Assembly (NCBI GenBank): GCA_903932755.1
Contig: CAIZHL010000595.1
Span: forward strand, 1-10,834
Direction: 5' to 3'
Source: an uncultured beta proteobacterium
GTDB lineage: Bacteria > Pseudomonadota > Gammaproteobacteria > Burkholderiales > Rhodocyclaceae
Length of the DNA stretch: 10,834 bases
Both the position numbers and the translations under genes were made by a program. The notes beneath the pieces are model-generated. The model ran no database searches, was not told where the DNA came from, and worked only from the letters and a program-made list of their open reading frames with translations. How positions within the stretch are numbered: the first letter of the stretch is position 1; every line of letters starts with the position of its first letter. Below, piece by piece: positions 1,617-10,834 of the stretch.

Positions 1617-2162
1617 ATGAAACCCCCGACCTCGACACCCATCCGCATCCTCGGCATTGATCCGGGCTTGCGCTCGACCGGGTTCGGCGTCATCGACAAG
1701 GCCGGCAACAAACTGGGCTATGTCGCCAGCGGCTGCATCAAGACCGATGCGGCGGGCAGCCTGCCGGAGCGGATCAAGACCATCCTCGACGGGCTGGTCG
1801 AAATCATCGCCACCTACACTCCGCAGCAGGCGGCTGTCGAGATCGTCTTCGTCAACGTGAACCCGCAATCCACGCTGCTGCTAGGCCAGGCCCGCGGCGC
1901 CGCGATTGCCGCGCTGGTCACGGCCAACCTTCCTGTTGCCGAGTACACGGCGCTGCAAGTCAAGCAGGCGGTGGTCGGCCACGGCAAGGCGGCGAAAGAG
2001 CAGGTGCAGGCCATGGTCGCCCGCCTGCTCGCCCTTCCCGGCAACCCGAGTCCCGACGCCGCCGACGCGCTGGCCTGCGCGATCGCGCACGCCCACGGCG
2101 GGCAGGGCATGGGCGCACTGGCCACCGCCGGACGCCGGGTCAAGGGCGGGAGGCTGGTGTAA
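1617..2162 (+). CDS. ruvC: RuvC crossover-junction endodeoxyribonuclease
   Basis: RuvC cuts Holliday junctions symmetrically after RuvAB branch migration. The 181-residue protein matches the family in length. The four acidic metal-binding residues of the RNase H-like fold are present: Asp15 in GIDPG, Glu75 in AVEIVF, and Asp147 and Asp150 in PDAADALA. The family blocks GQARGAA (90-96) and a basic [10 protein letters not shown] segment (121-130) are also intact. The start was set at ATG 1617 because it directly precedes the conserved N-terminus; an in-frame ATG at 1578 would add 13 residues encoded by the inverted repeat. Only a weak GAG (1606-1608) serves as a possible ribosome site. No LexA-type CTGT-N8-ACAG box is seen upstream. 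The TAA stop overlaps the next start codon by one base (TAATG). Confidence 0.97.
2148..2153 (+). promoter_or_regulatory. Strong Shine-Dalgarno for the glycosyltransferase inside ruvC
   Basis: GGGAGG lies 8 bases before ATG 2162, within the last codons of ruvC. It supports that start and independent initiation in addition to coupling through the TAATG overlap. Confidence 0.7.
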
Positions 2163-3382
2163 TGGCTTCAATTCTGTATGCATGGGAATTCGGCGCGAAC
2201 CTGGTGCATATCGGTACATTCCTGCCCATCGCACGGGAACTGCGAGCCCACGGCAACACGGTGCACTGGGTCGTCACCCATCCGCACCAAGCCGCCCGAC
2301 TCTTGCCCAAAGCCGGCTTCGACTGGCTGCAGGCGCCTACCATGCCGGAACAGCGGCGCGAGGGTCCTCCGCTAAGTTATGCCGACATACTTCTGCGCTT
2401 TGGCTACGCGGATAGCAACAACCTGCTGGGGCTGGTCGTCGCCTGGCGCGAACTGCTGCGCCTGACCGGTGCGAAAGTGGTACTCGCCGACCACTCACCG
2501 ACGGCGATCCTTGCCGCGCGCACACTGGATATCCCGGTGATGCTCTTCGGCAGCGGCTTCTTCACCCCGCCCCCGGTGCATCCGACGCCGAACATGCGGC
2601 CGTGGTCACCGGAGCCCATCGAGCACCTGCTCGCGATGGACCGCGTGGTGCTGACGAGCATCAATGAGGTACTCGAAGGCTGCCGCAAACCGGGGCTGGA
2701 CAGCCTGGCCCGGCTCTTCCAAGTGGCGGAGGACAGCCTGCTCAGTTTTCCCGAACTCGACCATTACCCGACCAGAGGCCAGGCCCGTTACTGGGGCATG
2801 CTGCCAGCCGCCGTCGCCGCGGACAGCACCTGGCCCGCCGCCCCCGGCCCACGGGTATTCTCCTACCTGCGGCCCGAGACGCCCCATCTCGAAGCCGCTT
2901 TGCAGGCGCTGCACGGACTCCAAGGCAGCGTTCTGATTTACGCGCCAGGCCTGCCGGCAGAATTGATGCGGCGGTACACGGCGCCGCACGTCACCTTCTC
3001 GACGGTGCCGGTGGACTTGAACAAGGTCGCGCGGCAGGCTGACGCCGGCCTGACCTATGCCAGCCCGGCGGCCACCGTTGCGTTCCTGATGGCCGGCAAA
3101 CCGGTGCTGATGATGCCGGGCCACCTCGAGCAATTTCTCTTCGCCAAGCGGGTCGAGGAAATGGGCGCCGGCCTCCTCCAGAACCCGGAACAGCCCCCGC
3201 AAAACCTGGCAGCGATGCTGCGGCAGGTGCTGACCGACCCGGGCATCCGCGCCAATGCCGGCGCCTTCGCCACCAAGTACGCCAATTTCGACCAGAATGC
3301 AGTCATGACACATATCGTCGCCCGCATCGAGGAACTGGCCGATGCAGCAACCAACAGCCCCAACGCCGGAGTTCGTCCATGA
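2162..3382 (+). CDS. GT-B fold (UGT/MGT-like, GT1-type) glycosyltransferase between ruvC and ruvA
   Basis: The 406-residue protein has the two-Rossmann layout of nucleotide-diphospho-sugar transferases. The N-terminal half opens with a glycine-rich turn and His16 ([20 protein letters not shown]), in the place of the usual catalytic histidine region, and has [19 protein letters not shown] (109-127). The C-terminal half has the donor-binding block at about 297-338, including [21 protein letters not shown] and EMGAGL, equivalent to P..DQ..NA.RV...G.G of the family. The usual H-x-G motif before this block reads TYASPAA, so the donor-contacting histidine is replaced. There is no signal peptide or membrane helix, so it is presumably cytosolic. 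Donor and acceptor are unknown. It overlaps ruvC by one base and ruvA by four (ATGA) and shares their GC level, which suggests long residence. Bacterial relatives often decorate lipids or natural products. Confidence 0.82.
3368..3371 (+). promoter_or_regulatory. Shine-Dalgarno of ruvA inside the glycosyltransferase gene
   Basis: GGAG lies 7 bases before the ruvA ATG (3379), within the 3' end of the preceding gene. It fixes the ruvA start and shows that ruvA translation signals are carried by the inserted gene. Confidence 0.6.
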
Positions 3383-5065: not shown

Positions 5066-5069
<4 letters not shown>

Positions 5070-5914
5070 TGACGGCATCCCTATCCATCATCACCACCTG
5101 CAAGGGCCGCCTTGAACATCTCAAGCAATCCCTGCCGCGCATGGTGGCACAGCCGAACTGCGAATGCATCGTCGTGGATTACGACTGCCCGGATGATACG
5201 GCGGCGTGGATTGGCGAGAATCATCCGCAGGTCAGGGTGCTCAAGGTCGAACAGGCACCCCGCTTTCACTTGGCCCGGGCCCGCAATCTGGGCGCCCGCG
5301 CCGCAACCAGCGAATGGCTTGCCTTCCTTGATGCCGATGTCCTGATCGAGCCCGACTTTGCATCCGATCTGAGTAGCGCATTGCGCCACGGACGCTACTT
5401 TCGGCCGCGGCCGCTAACCCGTGAAACCTGGGGCAGCTTCGTTTGTCATCGGGGGGATTTTTTCGCGCTCGAGGGCTTTGACGAAACGCTCGAGGGCTAT
5501 GGTGGCGAGGACAGCGACTTGTATTTTCGCCTGGATCATTTCGGGTGCTCCTGTGCGTTTTTCGACGCAAACCTACTGCGCTCCATACCTCACGACAACC
5601 AGCTGCGATCGGCGCATTTTGAAATCGCAGACATCGAACTCAACCGGCTAGTCAATTCTTCCTACAACCACATCAAATACGACCTGATGCGCGAATCGGG
5701 GCAGAACATTTTGCCGGCCGAAACCCGTCATGCCATCTATTCCGAAGTAAAGACCACGCTCGTCGAAAATTGGCGACGGGGCAAGAGCGCCGGCCGCATA
5801 ACCATCACCTTGCCAATCCGGCACGTCATACCCGTGCCGGATGGCTGGGCGATACGGCGTCACTGGACTTTTGAAATCGCACAAGTTTCCAGCAACGCGC
5901 CGCAATCCAGATGA
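5066..5914 (+). CDS. GT-A glycosyltransferase, GT2 with galactosyltransferase-like C-terminal motif, copy 1
   Basis: The 282-residue protein starts with the GT-A nucleotide-sugar fold ([19 protein letters not shown]), has the ARARNLGA helix (70-77) and a DxD metal site Asp89-Ala90-Asp91 in [12 protein letters not shown]. It continues with a WGSF segment (122-125) and [13 protein letters not shown] (144-156), the GGED motif that defines the Glyco_transf_7C type of acceptor/donor region. The last 80 residues are less conserved. No signal peptide or helix is visible, so the enzyme should act in the cytoplasm. Its ATG overlaps the ruvB stop by four bases (5066-5069), with a second ATG at 5069 as an alternative. 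It is adjacent to and homologous with the next gene. Donor sugar and acceptor are unknown. GC is lower than in ruvB. Confidence 0.85.
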
Positions 5915-6741
5915 GCAGGGAACTCTCTCTGATCACCACCTGCAAAGGCCGCCTTCATTATCTTCAGCAAACCCTGCCGGAGATGATGAAGCAGAAAAAT
6001 GCGGAATGTGTCGTGGTCGACTACGGCTGCCCGCAGGGAACCGGAGACTGGGTTGCCGAACATTTCCCGCAGGTCAAGGTCGTCAGGGTCAACGACGATC
6101 CGGGTTTCAACCAATGCCGTGCCAGGAATCTAGGCGCGGTCGCCGCCACATCTTCGCTGTTCTGTTTCGTCGACGCCGACATAAGGCTCGCCCCCGGATT
6201 TGCGTCCTGGATAGGCGCAAATTGCGCTGCAAAAACCTTTCTGCGGGCACAACCCGTGACCATGGACACATGGGGTACCTTTGCCTGTAACCGCGAGGAT
6301 TTCTGGCGCGTTGGCGGTTACGATGAAGTCTATGAAGGCTACGGGGCATCTCCGGAAGATCTATACCTTCGCCTCTCTAGTACTGGAATTTCTGAACACG
6401 GGTTCCCTGCCACCCTGATTTCCAGTATCCCCAACAGTGAAGCCGAACGCACCACTTTTTATGCGACCAATAACCGCTGGTGGCAACATAGAATCAATTC
6501 GCTTTACCTCATCGCAAAGCTAGACTTGATGAAGTTGCTCGAGGAAGACCTATCCATCGAAAAGAGGAAAGTACTCTACGTCCAATCCAGGCAGGCTATC
6601 GCGCACGCGATGAGCTCTTCAGCAAACGTTGCGACGCTCGAGGTCTCACTGGAAGACAAGACAACGCGAACCATGAATATACTCATCCGCCTCGACCGCA
6701 AGCTCACCTATTCGATCCGCTGGAAAGACTCTTCGCCGTAA
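5911..6741 (+). CDS. GT-A glycosyltransferase, diverged tandem paralogue, copy 2
   Basis: This 276-residue protein is clearly a duplicate of the preceding gene: 25 of the first 38 aligned residues are identical ([20 protein letters not shown]), and DNA at 5932-5955 matches 5090-5113 at 23 of 24 bases. The DxD metal site is kept as Asp88-Ala89-Asp90. The WGTF segment (121-124) is kept, but the GGED motif of copy 1 is replaced by GYGASPEDLYLRL (143-155), so the two copies probably differ in substrate. The C-terminal third has little similarity to copy 1. It overlaps copy 1 by four bases (ATGA), so the pair is probably translated together, perhaps adding consecutive sugars. Codon use is more AT-rich than in the core genes; the 60-base line from 6481 is about 42% GC. 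Confidence 0.83.
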   Translation: MSRELSLITTCKGRLHYLQQTLPEMMKQKNAECVVVDYGCPQGTGDWVAEHFPQVKVVRVNDDPGFNQCRARNLGAVAATSSLFCFVDADIRLAPGFASWIGANCAAKTFLRAQPVTMDTWGTFACNREDFWRVGGYDEVYEGYGASPEDLYLRLSSTGISEHGFPATLISSIPNSEAERTTFYATNNRWWQHRINSLYLIAKLDLMKLLEEDLSIEKRKVLYVQSRQAIAHAMSSSANVATLEVSLEDKTTRTMNILIRLDRKLTYSIRWKDSSP

Positions 6742-6761
6742 AAATCCAACCTGGATCAACT

Positions 6762-7556
6762 TTACGCAACGTCCTGTTTTTCGCCAAGATGGCTCAGATA
6801 AGCAGCTCTGATTCGCTCAGCCAATGCGCCTGGTGGTTTCTGCGTGGGAATCGCGGTAATTTCTTCTTCCGCCTGCGCAACGCGGTCAAGCCCGAGGAAA
6901 GCCGCACAACGCTCGAAAGCCTTCTGAGGATTCTGCAAAATCTCTTCATAGGCAATGTGCAGCAGCAGGCGGCCTGATAGCTGGCTGATAATCCCGCCAA
7001 TTACCCTCTCCTCCTCGACGTATTGCGAGTGGAGACGGTCGATATGCGGAAAGAGCTTGGAGACATCAATAGACTCAAGGTTTGGCTCGTCACCAAAATT
7101 GAACCACGTCCCCGTTGCATACGCGATCACACCTGATATAGCTTGCCGCAGCTTGTCTCGCCTTGTGATGAATATCAGCCGATCAAAACTTCCCAGGAAT
7201 CTTGCAGCACTGTTGAAATCTCCATCAACGAGAGGAAGCAATTGGTTGGGCTGAATCTTGACGCCGAACCATCCGTCACGGGTGGTTCTTGCCTGTGCTA
7301 CGACGTGAAGGTACCTGTCCAGGGTGACGGTCTCCGCGCGGCCAGAGAATAGGCGCGCACCCATGAGGTGAATGGCATCTGGGTGCAGGTACTCCATGGG
7401 AATGCCCAGGCGATTCTTTACATTACTCAGGCGTGCGCATAAATAATTGCTGCCGGTTCGCTGAGACGAAAAAATCGCGTAGCGATATTTTGGCTCAGAG
7501 AACTCTTTGCTATCGAACTGCGCACTGAAGTAGCTGGGCCAGTTGTGTGTCGCCAT
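6762..7556 (-). CDS. Stf0-family PAPS-dependent sulfotransferase
   Basis: The 264-residue protein matches the Stf0 (trehalose 2-sulfotransferase) family in length and motifs. The 5'-phosphosulfate loop is SSQRTGSNYLCARL (30-43), followed by GIPMEYLHP (51-59), where Glu55 is a candidate catalytic base by family analogy. FGVKIQPNQ (97-105) and the 3'-phosphate-binding segment TRRDKLRQAIS (131-141) with ATGTW (147-151) complete the family pattern. The enzyme would transfer sulfate from PAPS to a carbohydrate hydroxyl, on trehalose in the studied mycobacterial member; the acceptor here is unknown. It is convergent with the glycosyltransferase pair (20-bp gap) and divergent from ybgC (75-bp gap), so it needs its own promoter. 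Several 60-base lines are about 43-50% GC against two-thirds in tolQ, which points to recent acquisition. Confidence 0.88.
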   Translation of the reverse strand: MATHNWPSYFSAQFDSKEFSEPKYRYAIFSSQRTGSNYLCARLSNVKNRLGIPMEYLHPDAIHLMGARLFSGRAETVTLDRYLHVVAQARTTRDGWFGVKIQPNQLLPLVDGDFNSAARFLGSFDRLIFITRRDKLRQAISGVIAYATGTWFNFGDEPNLESIDVSKLFPHIDRLHSQYVEEERVIGGIISQLSGRLLLHIAYEEILQNPQKAFERCAAFLGLDRVAQAEEEITAIPTQKPPGALAERIRAAYLSHLGEKQDVA

Positions 7557-7631
7557 ATCTCGCTTCTGTTCTTAACGAAGGCGATTGATCATTCTGGATA
7601 GTATGCACGAATCGCAATGTAAAATTAGCGG
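7557..7631. promoter_or_regulatory. Divergent intergenic region between the sulfotransferase and ybgC
   Basis: This AT-richer 75-bp gap must hold the start signals of the minus-strand sulfotransferase. On the minus strand a TTTACA-like -35 (7623-7618) is followed after 17 bases by TATCCA (7600-7595), only a fair match. On the plus strand TAAAAT (7620-7625) could be the -10 of ybgC, overlapping that -35. If both are real, the two transcripts would compete for the same bases. Confidence 0.3.
7620..7631 (+). promoter_or_regulatory. Possible leaderless -10 element for ybgC and the tol operon
   Basis: TAAAAT (7620-7625) ends 6 bases before ATG 7632, placing a predicted start site at the start codon. 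There is no Shine-Dalgarno in front of ybgC. A clear -35 is absent at 16-18 bases upstream. Confidence 0.35.
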
Positions 7632-8069
7632 ATGGCGCACAGTACCAGTCTCAGGAACGTTGGCCAGACAGTCTCGGTTCGTATCTATTACGAAGACACC
7701 GATGCCGCCGGCATCGTCTATTACGCCAACTATTTGCGTTTCATCGAACGCGGGCGCACCGAGTTCCTGCGGGCACTCGGCCATGACCAGAATATCCTGA
7801 TGCAGGAAGGCATCGCCTTCGCGGTGCGCTCGGTCAGCGCGGAATTCCTCAAGCCGGCGAAACTCGACGACCTGCTGACGGTGGAAACTGCGGTGGCATC
7901 GCTCGGTCGCGCGCAATTGACGTTCGCCCAGCGCGTCCTGCGCGACACCGAGGTGCTGCTTGATGCGAAAATACGCGTCGTCTGCATCGACCCGGGGCGC
8001 GGCAAGGCGATCCCGATGCCACGCCTGATCCACGACCAGTTGGCCGCCCTGACGAAAGCCGCGCAATGA
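7632..8069 (+). CDS. ybgC: YbgC, Tol-Pal-associated acyl-CoA thioesterase
   Basis: This 145-residue hot-dog-fold protein belongs to the 4-hydroxybenzoyl-CoA thioesterase group. The signature YYEDTDAAGIVYYANYLRF (19-37) holds the catalytic Asp24, equivalent to Asp17 of the Pseudomonas 4HBT enzyme. The following helix FIERGRTEFLRALG is also typical of YbgC. YbgC proteins hydrolyse acyl-CoA substrates and are linked to phospholipid metabolism; the gene heads the tol operon in many proteobacteria, as here. The start at ATG 7632 leaves a normal short N-terminus before the first strand. The stop overlaps the tolQ start in ATGA, so the two are probably co-translated. It is the first plus-strand gene after the inserted block, and any promoter for the tol genes should lie in the 75 bp upstream or further back. 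Confidence 0.95.
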   Translation: MAHSTSLRNVGQTVSVRIYYEDTDAAGIVYYANYLRFIERGRTEFLRALGHDQNILMQEGIAFAVRSVSAEFLKPAKLDDLLTVETAVASLGRAQLTFAQRVLRDTEVLLDAKIRVVCIDPGRGKAIPMPRLIHDQLAALTKAAQ

Positions 8070-8743
8070 ACATCACCCAAGACCTATCCATCATCGAACT
8101 CGTCATCAACGCCAGCCTGGTGGTCAAGCTGGTGATGCTGCTGCTGACGATCGTGTCGCTGACGTCGTGGTACTGGATCTTTCGCAAGGCCTTCGCCATC
8201 CGCGATGCGCGGAGCAAGACCGACAAGTTCGAACGGGATTTCTGGAGCGGCGGCGACCTCAACGCCTTGTACCAGAGCGCCGTGAACAACCGCCACCAGA
8301 CCGGCGCCCTGGAGCGCATCTTCGAAGCCGGCTACCGCGAATTCACCAAGTTGCGCGGACAGAAGATCATCGACCCGACCGCCGTCATCGACGGCGCGCG
8401 GCGCGCGATGCGCGCAACCTACCAGCGCGAGATCGACGATCTCGAAGCCCACCTGGCCTTCCTCGCCTCGGTCGGTTCCGTTTCGCCTTACGTCGGCCTG
8501 TTCGGCACCGTGTGGGGCATCATGCACGCCTTCCGCGGCCTGGCCAACATGAGCACGGCGACGCTGTCGGCCGTCGCCCCCGGCATTGCCGAAGCGCTGG
8601 TGGCGACCGCCATCGGCCTCTTCGCCGCGATCCCGGCCGTGATCGCCTACAACCGCTTCGCCCACGACGTCGATCGCGTCGCGGTGCGCTTCGAGAGCTT
8701 CATGGAGGAGTTCTCCAACATCCTGCAACGGCAGACGCGCTAG
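8066..8743 (+). CDS. tolQ: TolQ, inner-membrane proton-channel subunit of the Tol-Pal system
   Basis: TolQ and TolR form the proton-driven motor that energises TolA for outer-membrane constriction during division and lipid homeostasis. The 225-residue protein has the MotA/TolQ/ExbB pattern: an N-terminal helix (about 12-36), a large cytoplasmic loop with REIDDLEAHLAFLASVG, and two further helices, around GLFGTVWGIMHAF (144-156) and GIAEALVATAIGLFAAIPAV (173-192). The GTVWGIMHAF and EALVATAIGL signatures agree with those of E. coli TolQ, and the pore-lining threonines appear intact. It overlaps ybgC by four bases. One base separates its TAG from the next ATG, but that gene is a glycosyltransferase rather than tolR, which is unusual because TolQ and TolR work in a fixed complex. 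Confidence 0.97.
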   Translation: MNITQDLSIIELVINASLVVKLVMLLLTIVSLTSWYWIFRKAFAIRDARSKTDKFERDFWSGGDLNALYQSAVNNRHQTGALERIFEAGYREFTKLRGQKIIDPTAVIDGARRAMRATYQREIDDLEAHLAFLASVGSVSPYVGLFGTVWGIMHAFRGLANMSTATLSAVAPGIAEALVATAIGLFAAIPAVIAYNRFAHDVDRVAVRFESFMEEFSNILQRQTR

Positions 8744-8744
8744 C

Positions 8745-9515
8745 ATGGCTGCGGTCAAGCATGTGCCGGTGCAGATGCTCTGGGTCGGCGGCCAGCTTTC
8801 GGCGCTGGAGCGCATGGCGCTGACCTCGTGGCTGGCGAACGGCCACGAGGTACATCTCTACAGCTACGGCAAGCCGGCGAACACGCCCAAGGGGCTGCGC
8901 ATTTGCGATGCGAGCGAAATCCTGCCGCCCCAGGCCGACACCCAAAGTTCCGCCAGCGGTCAGGCGCCGGTGCGCTTCTCCGACATGTTCAGCTATGCGC
9001 TGCTGCACAAGCGCGGCGGCATCTGGGTCGACATCGGCGTCGTTTGCCTGCGGCCGCTCGATTTCGCCGCGGGAATGGACTACTTCTTCGCCTCGGAAAT
9101 GCTTCCGGCCCTGGCCGGCGACGAAGGCAAGATGCGCGTCCGCACTTCGGGCTGCGTGATGAAATCACCACCCGGCAGCCCGCTGATGCAGGAATGCCTC
9201 GACCTCGCGCGCAGTTCGGCAGGCGCCGGCAGCGCCGCGGTGACCGGGCCTTTGCAACTGCACGGCGCCGTCGAGAAGTACAACATGGCCACGGCGCTGC
9301 TGAACCCCAACCTGTTCTGCCCGGTGCCGTTCTGGAACATGACCGCGCTGATCAGCGGCCTGACCGTGCTGCCGCCGGAGAGTTACGGGGTCCATCTGTG
9401 GCCCCAGAGCTGGCGGCGCAATTTCTTCGACAAGAATGCCGGTTACGACCCCTTGTCGCTGGTCGAGCGCCTCAAGGCCCACTACCTAGGACGCAAGGAA
9501 GTTTCCCGTGCGTAA
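8745..9515 (+). CDS. GT32-like glycosyltransferase (DXD sugar-binding region family) between tolQ and tolR
   Basis: The 256-residue protein begins with IPxxxxxxW-like VPVQMLWVGGQLS, then LTSWLANGHEVHLYSYG, and has the family core FSDMFSYALLHKRGGIWVD (78-96), where Ser79-Asp80 and the GGIW turn are typical of the Gly_transf_sug/capsular polysaccharide synthesis group. The family continues as D-x-D-V, but here residues 96-100 are D-I-G-V-V (GAC ATC GGC GTC GTT), so the second metal-binding Asp is missing. Later family marks are TGPLQLHGAV (167-176) and the C-terminal HLWPQSW (217-223). There is no signal peptide. Its ATG is one base after the tolQ stop, and its 3' end carries the tolR Shine-Dalgarno and overlaps the tolR start by eight bases. 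GC is as high as in the tol genes. It may be a low-activity or altered-mechanism transferase. Confidence 0.84.
   Translation: MAAVKHVPVQMLWVGGQLSALERMALTSWLANGHEVHLYSYGKPANTPKGLRICDASEILPPQADTQSSASGQAPVRFSDMFSYALLHKRGGIWVDIGVVCLRPLDFAAGMDYFFASEMLPALAGDEGKMRVRTSGCVMKSPPGSPLMQECLDLARSSAGAGSAAVTGPLQLHGAVEKYNMATALLNPNLFCPVPFWNMTALISGLTVLPPESYGVHLWPQSWRRNFFDKNAGYDPLSLVERLKAHYLGRKEVSRA
9495..9501 (+). promoter_or_regulatory. Shine-Dalgarno of tolR inside the glycosyltransferase gene
   Basis: AAGGAAG lies 6 bases before GTG 9508, which decides this start over the ATG at 9526. It lies in the last codons of the upstream gene. Confidence 0.65.
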
Positions 9516-9927
9516 GCGTCGGCTCATGAACGAAATCAACGTCGTTCCCTATATCGACGTGATGCGGGTGCTGCTCGTGATCTTCATGGTCACCGCGCCG
9601 ATGATCCAGCCCGGCAGCGTCGACCTGCCCAGCGTCGGCAAGAGCAGCCTGCCGCCGGTGGCGCCGCTGGAAGTCATCATCAAGGCCGACACGTCACTCG
9701 CCCTGCGCGACCGCTCGAAGGGCGGCGCGGAACAGGTGGTGACGCGCGCCGACCTGGCCGGCCGGATCAAGCAGGCGCAAGCCGCGAATCCGCAGCAGGC
9801 GGTGCTGATCGCCGGCGACAAGAGCGTCAGGTATGAAGCGGTGCTGGGCGTGATGGACGAACTGCAGCGGCAGCAGGTCACCCGGATCGGGCTGCTGGTG
9901 CAGCCGGTGCAGCCGGCGGCGAAATAG
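9508..9927 (+). CDS. tolR: TolR, stator subunit with periplasmic peptidoglycan-interacting domain
   Basis: The 139-residue protein has the ExbD/TolR plan: a short basic cytoplasmic tail (MRKRR), EINVVPYIDVM with the essential membrane Asp17 (equivalent to E. coli TolR Asp23), one helix (about 16-33, ending FMVTAPM), and a periplasmic domain from SVDLPSVGKSS to the C-terminus. Residue 20 is Arg (CGG) where relatives read Leu in DVMLVLLVIF; a single T-to-G change would explain it. The start is GTG 9508, supported by AAGGAAG; it overlaps the glycosyltransferase by eight bases. ATG 9526 would remove the basic tail. tolA follows with no gap. Assignment is secure; full function depends on whether the arginine is tolerated. 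Confidence 0.94.
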   Translation: MRKRRLMNEINVVPYIDVMRVLLVIFMVTAPMIQPGSVDLPSVGKSSLPPVAPLEVIIKADTSLALRDRSKGGAEQVVTRADLAGRIKQAQAANPQQAVLIAGDKSVRYEAVLGVMDELQRQQVTRIGLLVQPVQPAAK

Positions 9928-10701
9928 GTGACCGAAACCCCGATCCTGCCGCCTTCGAACAAGGCCGGCAAGCGCGCCTCAATCGCCCTCGCGATCGCGG
10001 TACACCTGCTGCTGGCCGGATTCCTGTTTTACGGGGTGCGCTGGCAGACCAAGGCCACCGACGTGGTCGAGGTCGAACTGGTACGCGCCGTTGCCGAACC
10101 CGCTCCCGCCTCCCCTGTTGCCCCGCCCGTCGCCGTGCCGCCAGCGCCGACTTTTGAGCCGCCACCGGTGCCCAAGCCTGAGCCGGTGCGCCCGCCGCCG
10201 AAACCGGACATCGCCATCAAGGAAAAGGAAAAGCCCAAGCCGCCGCCCAAGGTCGAGCCCAAGCCCGTGCCGCCGCCCAAGGTCGAAGCGAAGCCGCGCG
10301 TCGATCCCTTCCAGGAACAGCTCCTGCGCGAGACCGAGCAACTGACCCAGCGCAAACAGGCCGAAACCGCCGCCCAGGAACTCAACCAGTTGAAGGCGGC
10401 GCAAACCGCCTCGGCGCGCAACAAGGCCGTCGCCGATTACCTCGGCCGCATCCGCGGCAAGATCCGCGGCAACATTGTTCTTCCCCCCGACATCAAAGGC
10501 AATCCCGAGGCCATTTTCGAGGTGACGCAACTGCCCAGCGGCGAGGTTATTAGTGTCAAGGTGAAAAAATCTTCCGGGAATCCCGCGCTCGATGCGGCTG
10601 TTGAACGCGCCATCCTGAAGTCCAGTCCTTTGCCAAAGCCCGAGCAGAACGATGTTTTTGACCGTTTGCTGAACATTCCCTACCGGCCGATAGGGGACTA
10701 G
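9928..10701 (+). CDS. tolA: TolA, TonB-like trans-envelope energy transducer
   Basis: TolA spans the periplasm and passes TolQR energy to TolB-Pal. The 257-residue protein is much shorter than the 421-residue E. coli form. It has a cytoplasmic tail, one signal-anchor helix (about 18-37, with His26 in the place of the conserved helix histidine), and a proline-rich stalk (56-125). A charged, Gln/Ala-rich helix likely to be coiled coil follows (127-168), then a C-terminal TonB/TolA domain (about 170-257: YLGRIRGKI, GNPEAIFEVTQLPSGEVISV, NPALDAAVERAI). The start GTG at 9928 follows the tolR TAG directly, with a weak ribosome site. The stalk contains a tandem PPPKVE-KP repeat that is also visible in the DNA. 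The long proline runs may make its translation dependent on EF-P. Confidence 0.94.
   Translation: MTETPILPPSNKAGKRASIALAIAVHLLLAGFLFYGVRWQTKATDVVEVELVRAVAEPAPASPVAPPVAVPPAPTFEPPPVPKPEPVRPPPKPDIAIKEKEKPKPPPKVEPKPVPPPKVEAKPRVDPFQEQLLRETEQLTQRKQAETAAQELNQLKAAQTASARNKAVADYLGRIRGKIRGNIVLPPDIKGNPEAIFEVTQLPSGEVISVKVKKSSGNPALDAAVERAILKSSPLPKPEQNDVFDRLLNIPYRPIGD
10231..10290 (+). repeat. Two tandem 30-bp units in the tolA proline-rich stalk
   Basis: Units 10231-10260 and 10261-10290 agree at about 25 of 30 bases, including an identical 18-base core (10239-10256 and 10269-10286). They encode KPKPPPKVEP followed by KPVPPPKVEA. Copy number at such repeats can change by slippage, altering stalk length without a frameshift. 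Confidence 0.75.
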
Positions 10702-10706
10702 ACCGC

Positions 10707-10719
10707 TATAATTCGGTCC
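10707..10719 (+). promoter_or_regulatory. Consensus -10 TATAAT just before tolB
   Basis: A perfect TATAAT (10707-10712) ends 7 bases before ATG 10720, so the predicted start site is at or one base from the start codon. The 18-bp tolA-tolB gap has no Shine-Dalgarno close to the start, and no good -35 is found 16-18 bases upstream. An internal promoter before tolB has precedent in the E. coli tol-pal cluster. Confidence 0.45.
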
Positions 10720-10834
10720 ATGAAATTCAACGCTTTACTCGTCGCTGCCGGCTTGGCGGCCATGTCTTTCCTGGCCAATGCCCAGCTCACGGTGGAAATC
10801 ACCGGTGCCGGCGCCAACCGCCTGCCGGTCGCCA
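10720..10834 (+). CDS. tolB: TolB, periplasmic beta-propeller of Tol-Pal, 3'-truncated by the window edge
   Basis: Only the first 38 codons are present. Translation gives MKFNALLVAAGLAAMSFLAN followed by AQLTVEITGAGANRLPVA. The first part is a classical Sec signal peptide: one Lys, a hydrophobic core, then ANA before the predicted cleavage in front of Gln22. The mature start, LTVEITGAGANRLPVA, matches the N-terminal strand of TolB (E-I-T-x-G), the segment that contacts TolA or Pal. The order after tolA is the expected one. The start ATG 10720 lies 18 bp after the tolA stop, with TATAAT in that gap and no ribosome-binding site. The rest, including the propeller, and presumably pal, lies beyond the window. 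Confidence 0.92.
   Translation, partial: MKFNALLVAAGLAAMSFLANAQLTVEITGAGANRLPVA

What the first reader, a model, noticed from the sequence alone, without database searches (positions are those of the whole stretch)
8066..9927. Glycosyltransferase gene embedded between tolQ and tolR
TolQ and TolR assemble in a fixed stoichiometry and their genes are nearly always adjacent. Here a GT32-like transferase follows tolQ by one base, overlaps tolR by eight bases and carries the tolR Shine-Dalgarno. The fit and matching GC mean it is not a recent accident. A link between a glycan-modifying enzyme and the Tol-Pal envelope motor, for example making a glycan whose placement follows Tol activity, is possible but is inference.
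Basis: partly seen in the sequence, partly recalled or inferred. Interest (0 to 1): 0.72.

Follow-up and report, generated by a model that had tools for sequence, protein, structure and literature searches.

The report
Sugar-transferase gene lodged between tolQ and tolR
In one family of environmental bacteria, a gene from a sugar-transferring enzyme family sits inside a tightly conserved cell-envelope operon, and in this genome it looks catalytically disarmed yet strongly preserved, which raises the question of what it now does there.

Summary
In detail: tolQ (8066-8743), a 256-aa GT-A-fold protein (8745-9515) and tolR (9508-9927) run on one strand, 1-nt gap then 8-nt overlap. It is not a one-assembly oddity: 15 genomes of six genera in one betaproteobacterial family carry this gene in the tol cluster (14 tolQ^tolR, 1 tolR^tolA). 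In an order-wide control, 113 of 116 genomes have tolQ and tolR within 300 bp; besides the window, the exceptions are two genomes with FkbM methyltransferase genes there. The insertion fits a wider pattern: glycosyl-, methyl- and sulfotransferase genes lie at several junctions of ruvC-ruvA-ruvB-ybgC-tol in relatives. The window protein has lost the second Asp of DXD and a conserved Glu (DXD is changed in 18 of 41 close homologue clusters, 0 of 37 others), while dN/dS stays about 0.1. And the four genomes of its subclade gave no match for the L-Ara4N genes arnC and arnA, whereas the one clade member seen outside tol sits inside an arn operon. Best reading: an LPS-modifying transferase family that joined the tol operon and is, in this lineage, a selected probable pseudoenzyme. 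No functional link to Tol-Pal is shown. Side finding: relatives without it carry a covarying hairpin over the tolR start.

The parts
7632..8069 (+). ybgC (thioesterase), first gene of the tol cluster here
   Evidence: Pfam 4HBT_2 2.4e-16
8066..8743 (+). tolQ
   Evidence: Pfam MotA_ExbB 5.5e-39
8745..9515 (+). GT-A-fold protein of the Gly_transf_sug (GT32-like) group, class A, 256 aa
9030..9038 (+). position of the DXD motif, residues 96-98, here D-I-G (second Asp lost)
   Evidence: alignments
9405..9407 (+). residue 221, Gln here, a nearly invariant Glu in the family
9495..9501 (+). Shine-Dalgarno-like AAGGAAG for tolR, inside the GT gene
   Evidence: read from sequence
9508..9927 (+). tolR (GTG start, overlaps GT by 8 nt)
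   Evidence: Pfam ExbD 6.5e-27
9928..10701 (+). tolA
   Evidence: Pfam TonB_2 7.3e-20, TolA 4.7e-8
2162..3382 (+). second transferase-like gene lodged between ruvC and ruvA (EryCIII-like C-terminal domain)
   Evidence: Pfam 30.0 bits, just under cut-off 31.7; same place in 15 of 17 relatives whose stretch holds both ruvC and ruvA
5066..6741 (+). two GT2-family genes lodged between ruvB and ybgC, lower GC3 (0.686, 0.639)
6762..7556 (-). Stf0-type sulfotransferase gene, opposite strand, GC3 0.585

Best explanation
The gene belongs to a betaproteobacterial family of small GT-A proteins whose ancestral work was most likely to add a sugar to LPS (core or lipid A region). It became a translated part of the ybgC-tolQ-tolR-tolA operon, as one of many glycan-type genes lodged in the conserved ruv-ybgC-tol cluster of this family. 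Shown: position, recurrence, predicted fold, codon-level purifying selection, loss of the DXD second Asp and of Glu221, no match for arnC and arnA in the same subclade. Inferred: LPS as the substrate, loss of catalysis in this lineage, and that the kept protein now acts by binding (a nucleotide sugar, an envelope enzyme or the Tol stator) or simply as the gene through which tolR is translated.
For: All ten in-genus proteins and four of five strong hits in other genera lie exactly between tolQ and tolR, the fifth between tolR and tolA. The tol-linked proteins fall in one clade with support 1.000, together with database proteins of unseen context and L067; L067, the one member seen elsewhere, is inside an L-Ara4N (arn) operon, between the ArnA-type UDP-4-ketopentose gene and arnD. 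Neighbouring junctions hold glycosyl-, methyl- and sulfotransferase genes: 20 of 30 gap ORFs scanned pass a Pfam cut-off, 16 of those 20 glycan-type. Two genomes of another family have FkbM methyltransferase genes at the tolQ^tolR junction. dN/dS of the gene within G000, G012, G020, G029 is 0.088-0.127 (TolR 0.092-0.169, TolA 0.126-0.221). The window protein keeps 33 of 36 nearly invariant residues; two of the three it lost are D98 and E221. arnC and the arnA dehydrogenase both gave no match in G000, G012, G020, G029 and one other (G016) of 31 genus genomes; the formyltransferase gave none in the same five and in G213, of 22 tested.
Against: No experiment shows any substrate. Metal-independent GT-A enzymes are known (GT6, PMC3961637, abstract seen), so loss of the motif does not prove inactivity. 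G012 of the same subclade has an intact DXD with Gln221. G013 has its first Asp changed and keeps the arn genes, so active-site change and arn loss are not always coupled. 16 of the 17 genus genomes without the gene have the arnA dehydrogenase, so arn does not need it. The arn absence rests on four draft genomes (70-90% complete) that may be one clade.
Confidence: 0.45

Rival explanations
1. Preferred landing region only: glycan-type genes accumulate in the ruv-tol cluster because it is steadily expressed and recombines between relatives; the tolQ^tolR position has no meaning for Tol-Pal.
For: Similar genes sit at ruvC^ruvA, ruvA^ruvB, ruvB^ybgC and ybgC^tolQ; presence is patchy among related species; the upstream GT2 and Stf0 genes have low GC3; class A and two other subgroups of the protein (about 46% identical to the window) occupy the identical site in different species, and the paired species G023 and G024 carry different subgroups, as if swapped through the flanks.
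Against: The insert joins tolQ and tolR without damage and with a fixed 8-nt overlap in the genus, is under strong purifying selection, and one protein clade keeps to the tol cluster across six genera.
Confidence: 0.35
2. The window protein is an active but metal-independent glycosyltransferase; the changed residues mark a change of mechanism or donor, not loss of activity.
For: dN/dS about 0.1 and retention of 33 of 36 nearly invariant residues; metal-independent GT6 enzymes are known (PMC3961637, abstract).
Against: Over class A database clusters all eight that lost the Glu also have a changed DXD, more like decay of one site than a switch, though the genome G012 has Gln221 with DXD intact; several different replacements occur (DIG, DIS, NID, SID, GID, EID).
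Confidence: 0.15
3. A catalytically inactive GT-A protein that works in the Tol-Pal machine itself, for example by binding TolQ or TolR or by reporting nucleotide-sugar supply.
For: Gene arrangement that predicts co-translation with TolQ and TolR, and selection without an intact active site. Precedent for GT-fold proteins whose catalytic residues are not needed: IRX9 (PMC4132061, abstract).
Against: No interaction data; 17 of 27 genus genomes with a tol-type tolR do without it.
Confidence: 0.12
4. Assembly or contamination artefact.
For: The window's own genome is a 603-contig draft, 70% complete.
Against: Same order in 14 genomes, on contigs up to 400 kb.
Confidence: 0.01

Closest known systems
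Gly_transf_sug / GT32-type glycosyltransferases (PF04488; the mannosyltransferase Och1, 9n3s, is the best solved match by sequence; that Och1 is the GT32 type enzyme is recalled)
   Same: GT-A fold, sequence around the DXD region; profile hit to 9n3s E 1.9e-4 over profile positions 78-106
   Different: Second Asp of DXD and conserved Glu221 lost in the window protein; Pfam score below cut-off; gene inside the tol operon
Canonical ybgC-tolQ-tolR-tolA-tolB-pal operon
   Same: Gene order and strand otherwise normal as far as the window reaches; [quoted passage not shown]
   Different: An extra gene separates tolQ and tolR
arn (L-Ara4N lipid A modification) operon
   Same: A 49% identical relative sits inside one (L067)
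   Different: The window gene is not in an arn operon and its own subclade gave no match for arnC and arnA
GT-fold proteins with a non-catalytic role such as plant IRX9 (PMC4132061, abstract)
   Same: GT fold kept while catalytic residues are dispensable or lost
   Different: No activity or interaction data here; different family and kingdom

Membership tests
Gly_transf_sug (PF04488) / GT32-like | Pfam score at or above the curated cut-off | tested here: not met
   21.5 bits against 23 for the window protein; several relatives carry the precomputed PF04488 label
Gly_transf_sug (PF04488) / GT32-like | GT-A fold | tested here: met
Gly_transf_sug (PF04488) / GT32-like | DXD motif | tested here: not met
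   D96-I97-G98 in the window; DXD in 23 of 41 class A clusters and 37 of 37 others readable
Gly_transf_sug (PF04488) / GT32-like | CAZy family assignment GT32 | not testable with these tools
   no CAZy library on hand
Gly_transf_sug (PF04488) / GT32-like | glycosyltransferase activity | not testable with these tools
   needs an assay
Pseudoenzyme (descriptive class) | loss of catalytic or metal-binding residues with the rest of the conserved set kept | tested here: met
   33 of 36 nearly invariant positions kept, D98 and E221 lost; the catalytic role of E221 is assumed from its conservation, not shown
Pseudoenzyme (descriptive class) | purifying selection on the protein | tested here: met
   dN/dS 0.088-0.127 over six pairs
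Pseudoenzyme (descriptive class) | absence of activity | not testable with these tools
   needs an assay
tol-pal operon gene | same strand, tight spacing, no internal terminator or promoter | tested here: met
   1-nt gap and 8-nt overlap; no promoter-like site in 7500-10834, and 3 terminator-like sites against 3.1 expected, none between tolQ and tolR
tol-pal operon gene | one continuous transcript | not testable with these tools
   no RNA-seq on hand

The most novel reading that the evidence does not exclude
A disarmed glycosyltransferase has been recruited into the Tol-Pal operon as a non-catalytic partner: it is made in step with TolQ and TolR, still binds a sugar nucleotide or LPS intermediate, and tunes the stator or tolR translation to LPS supply. 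The tolQ^tolR junction in this genus would then be an evolving control point with three states: direct overlap, an interposed protein, or a covarying hairpin over the tolR start.
Probability: 0.12. Interest if true: 0.85.

Novelty: new variant of a known kind. Interest (0 to 1): 0.6.

Why it matters
How the Tol-Pal motor and LPS or other surface glycans influence each other is open; the review seen (PMC7391070, passages) reports loss of full O-antigen in tolA cells, probably through a shortened core LPS, and asks whether O-antigen is why tol-pal is essential in some species. A genus in which a glycan-type gene is lodged within tolQR in some species and absent in close relatives is a natural experiment for that question. 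A strongly selected protein that has lost its catalytic motif inside this operon would be a new, testable component. The junction also shows that strict tolQ-tolR adjacency can be broken, in at least two families, in the sampled cases by a glycosyltransferase-type gene or by FkbM-type methyltransferase genes.

Tried and rejected
Single-assembly artefact: rejected, same order in 14 genomes. Wider spread of the tol-linked gene: not found beyond the family. The order scan (399 genomes, 20 with a match) and the class scan (369 genomes, 7 with a match at E 1e-10 including the own one) gave no further tol-linked strong match in the 1.5 kb or so fetched on each side. Of 51 loci on named contigs 9 are tol-linked, L067 is arn-linked, and the other 41 show no Tol protein within the flank held. 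The weak GT-like matches upstream of ybgC in G082, G180 and G213 (E 1.5e-8 to 1.8e-7) were not confirmed: the ORF in G082 has no Pfam hit, the other two were not scanned. A second strong copy in the own genome: none found. Rfam: no family in the window at gathering score; in six relatives the tolR hairpins match only microRNA models far below their gathering scores, taken as chance. Literature: seven searches; in their listings I saw no paper on a glycosyltransferase between tolQ and tolR, on glycan genes in a ruv-tol cluster, or on a hairpin over tolR; I saw passages of one paper and the abstracts and section lists of two. Fold libraries: hits to effector and toxin glucosyltransferase domains are read as shared GT-A fold only. 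The core tree places G020 on a partial TolQ and TolR only, so its position is weak. Ten of the 30 gap ORFs scanned had no Pfam hit above cut-off, and some may be wrong frames; 28 of the 30 are from the 92 listed, one is the Stf0 match and one is the opposite strand of a listed ORF in L182.

Full report
Observation. The reading frames are as described. tolQ ends at 8743, the inserted gene runs 8745-9515, tolR starts with GTG at 9508 and tolA at 9928. The SD-like sequence for tolR (AAGGAAG, 9495-9501) is inside the inserted gene. GC3 of the insert (0.852) is near tolQ (0.912) and tolR (0.900), unlike the two GT2 genes and the Stf0 gene upstream of ybgC (0.686, 0.639, 0.585).

Recurrence. A tol-type tolR is found in 27 of 31 (G010, G014, G028 and G030 gave only paralogue-level matches). 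All 10 proteins lie between tolQ and tolR, and in all 10 the end of the inserted gene overlaps tolR by the same 8 nt. In the family scan (395 genomes drawn from a larger group) 21 have a match and 11 have one at E below 1e-90: six of the genus and G031, G075, G098, G153, G165 of five other genera. G031, G075, G098 and G165 are tolQ-GT-tolR; G153 is tolQ-tolR-GT-tolA. With the four in-genus carriers that this draw left out, that makes 15 distinct genomes. Order (399) and class (369) scans added no strong tol-linked match.

Control for adjacency. From 250 order genomes searched for TolQ and TolR the tool listed part of the matches; I could use 150 and 147 genomes, and 116 had both genes on one contig. 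The median gap is 35 bp; 113 are under 300 bp. The three larger ones are the window (767), G573 (829) and G497 (1686). The inserts of G573 and G497 are one and two FkbM-type methyltransferase genes (Pfam 3.4e-21; 9.4e-17 and 1.1e-16). FkbM-type genes also occur at ruvB^ybgC in relatives of the window. So in this sample each interrupted tolQ^tolR junction holds a modification-enzyme type of gene, in two families. That FkbM enzymes here act on the envelope is inference.

Setting. The window is a yebC-ruvC-ruvA-ruvB-ybgC-tolQ-tolR-tolA cluster. In relatives extra genes occur at several of its junctions: an EryCIII-like gene between ruvC and ruvA in 15 of the 17 genomes whose stretch holds both (absent in G005 and G017), others at ruvA^ruvB, ruvB^ybgC and ybgC^tolQ. 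Of 30 gap ORFs scanned, 20 reach a Pfam cut-off: 10 glycosyltransferases, 2 sulfotransferases, 3 methyltransferases and 1 GDP-mannose dehydratase, plus DUF707, NTP_transf_3, Radical SAM and UbiA. The finding is thus one case of glycan-type genes lodged in a housekeeping cluster. Some relatives (G005, G017) have almost no extra genes there.

Clue to function. L067, the one member of the clade seen outside tol, lies between the ArnA-type UDP-4-ketopentose gene and arnD in an arnT-arnB-arnC-formyltransferase stretch; only the formyltransferase and ketopentose genes pass their NCBIfam cut-offs, the others have arn families as best hit. In the genus, the arnA dehydrogenase gave no match at E 1e-60 in 6 of 31 (G000, G012, G016, G020, G026, G029) and arnC none at E 1e-90 in 6 of 31 (G000, G012, G016, G020, G021, G029); in G026 and G021 the remaining arn genes appear to be cut by contig ends. 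The formyltransferase gave none at E 1e-40 in 6 of 22 tested (G000, G012, G016, G020, G029, G213). So all four genomes with Gln221 miss all three genes, and one other genus genome (G016, without the inserted gene) does. arnD is kept in three of the four without other arn genes beside it. The ten genomes with both residues intact all have the formyltransferase. Counter-cases: G013, with a changed first Asp, has the arn operon, and 16 of 17 genomes without the inserted gene have the dehydrogenase. The link is suggestive, not established: four drafts, perhaps one clade.

Patchiness. In a tree of seven housekeeping proteins the carriers are scattered: six (G006, G011, G013, G020, G026, G029) are placed next to genomes without the gene, while G000-G012 and G023-G024 pair with each other; several of these supports are low. 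G023 and G024 carry different subgroups of the protein. Repeated loss and exchange through the flanks both fit.

The junction without the gene. Of the 17 genus genomes with tolR but without the insert, 4 have the tight tolQ-tolR overlap and 13 carry 58-214 bp (127 in seven), most with a dispersed GC-rich repeat and, at the end, an inverted copy of the first 22 nt of tolR, giving a long hairpin with the start codon in the stem and an SD-like G-rich stretch in the loop; in L026 and L029 it is much weaker. Over the 13 sequences 94.1% of cells pair and 11 of 22 pairs show changes on both sides, 0 of 500 shuffles reach this. The repeat (pattern, up to 2 mismatches) is in 28 of 31 genomes with 0 control matches. 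Of 27 copies read, one per genome, 12 have a hairpin of score 11 or more just downstream, against at most 9 in 72 control stretches; two of the 12 are the tolR junction and four share one hairpin sequence. Selection for the RNA hairpin or template-switch repair of a palindrome both explain the covariation. Folding the tolR starts of the carriers of the inserted gene shows no such hairpin.

Judgement. I think the most likely history is an LPS-type transferase family that became an operon resident, with catalysis probably lost in this lineage while the protein stays under selection (0.45). A landing region without functional link is the main rival (0.35).

Noticed in passing
L018, L019, L023, L025-L029, L031, L033, L035, L037, L038 (tolQ^tolR junctions of 13 genus genomes without the inserted gene): A 22-bp covarying hairpin formed by an inverted copy of the first codons of tolR covers the tolR start, with an SD-like stretch in the loop; 11 of 22 pairs have both-sided changes; much weaker in L026 and L029. 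Possible translational control of tolR, or palindrome repair.
   Followed up: partly
L135-L164 and the tolQ^tolR loci: A dispersed repeat with core CCCCCTTTNNNNNAAAGGGGGNNGGGGGGAT in 28 of 31 genus genomes, in 12 of 27 copies read followed closely by a long hairpin.
   Followed up: partly
window 2162-3382: EryCIII-like transferase gene between ruvC and ruvA; same place in 15 of 17 relatives whose stretch holds both genes.
   Followed up: partly
window 5066-7556: Two GT2 genes and an opposite-strand Stf0 sulfotransferase between ruvB and ybgC with lower GC3; the contents of this junction differ widely among relatives.
   Followed up: partly
L244 4426-6080 and L245 6793-7590: FkbM methyltransferase genes (two in tandem, and one) between tolQ and tolR in another betaproteobacterial family; many relatives of 50-60% identity are in the protein database, neighbourhoods not seen.
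   Followed up: partly
L239, L240, L241: arnD-like gene kept without other arn genes beside it in G012, G029, G020; may serve another lipid A amino sugar.
   Followed up: no
P0018 with P0052, P0024 with P0048: A class A and a non-class-A protein have the same longest-contig length in the table, so some genomes may carry both; the contigs could not be fetched.
   Followed up: no
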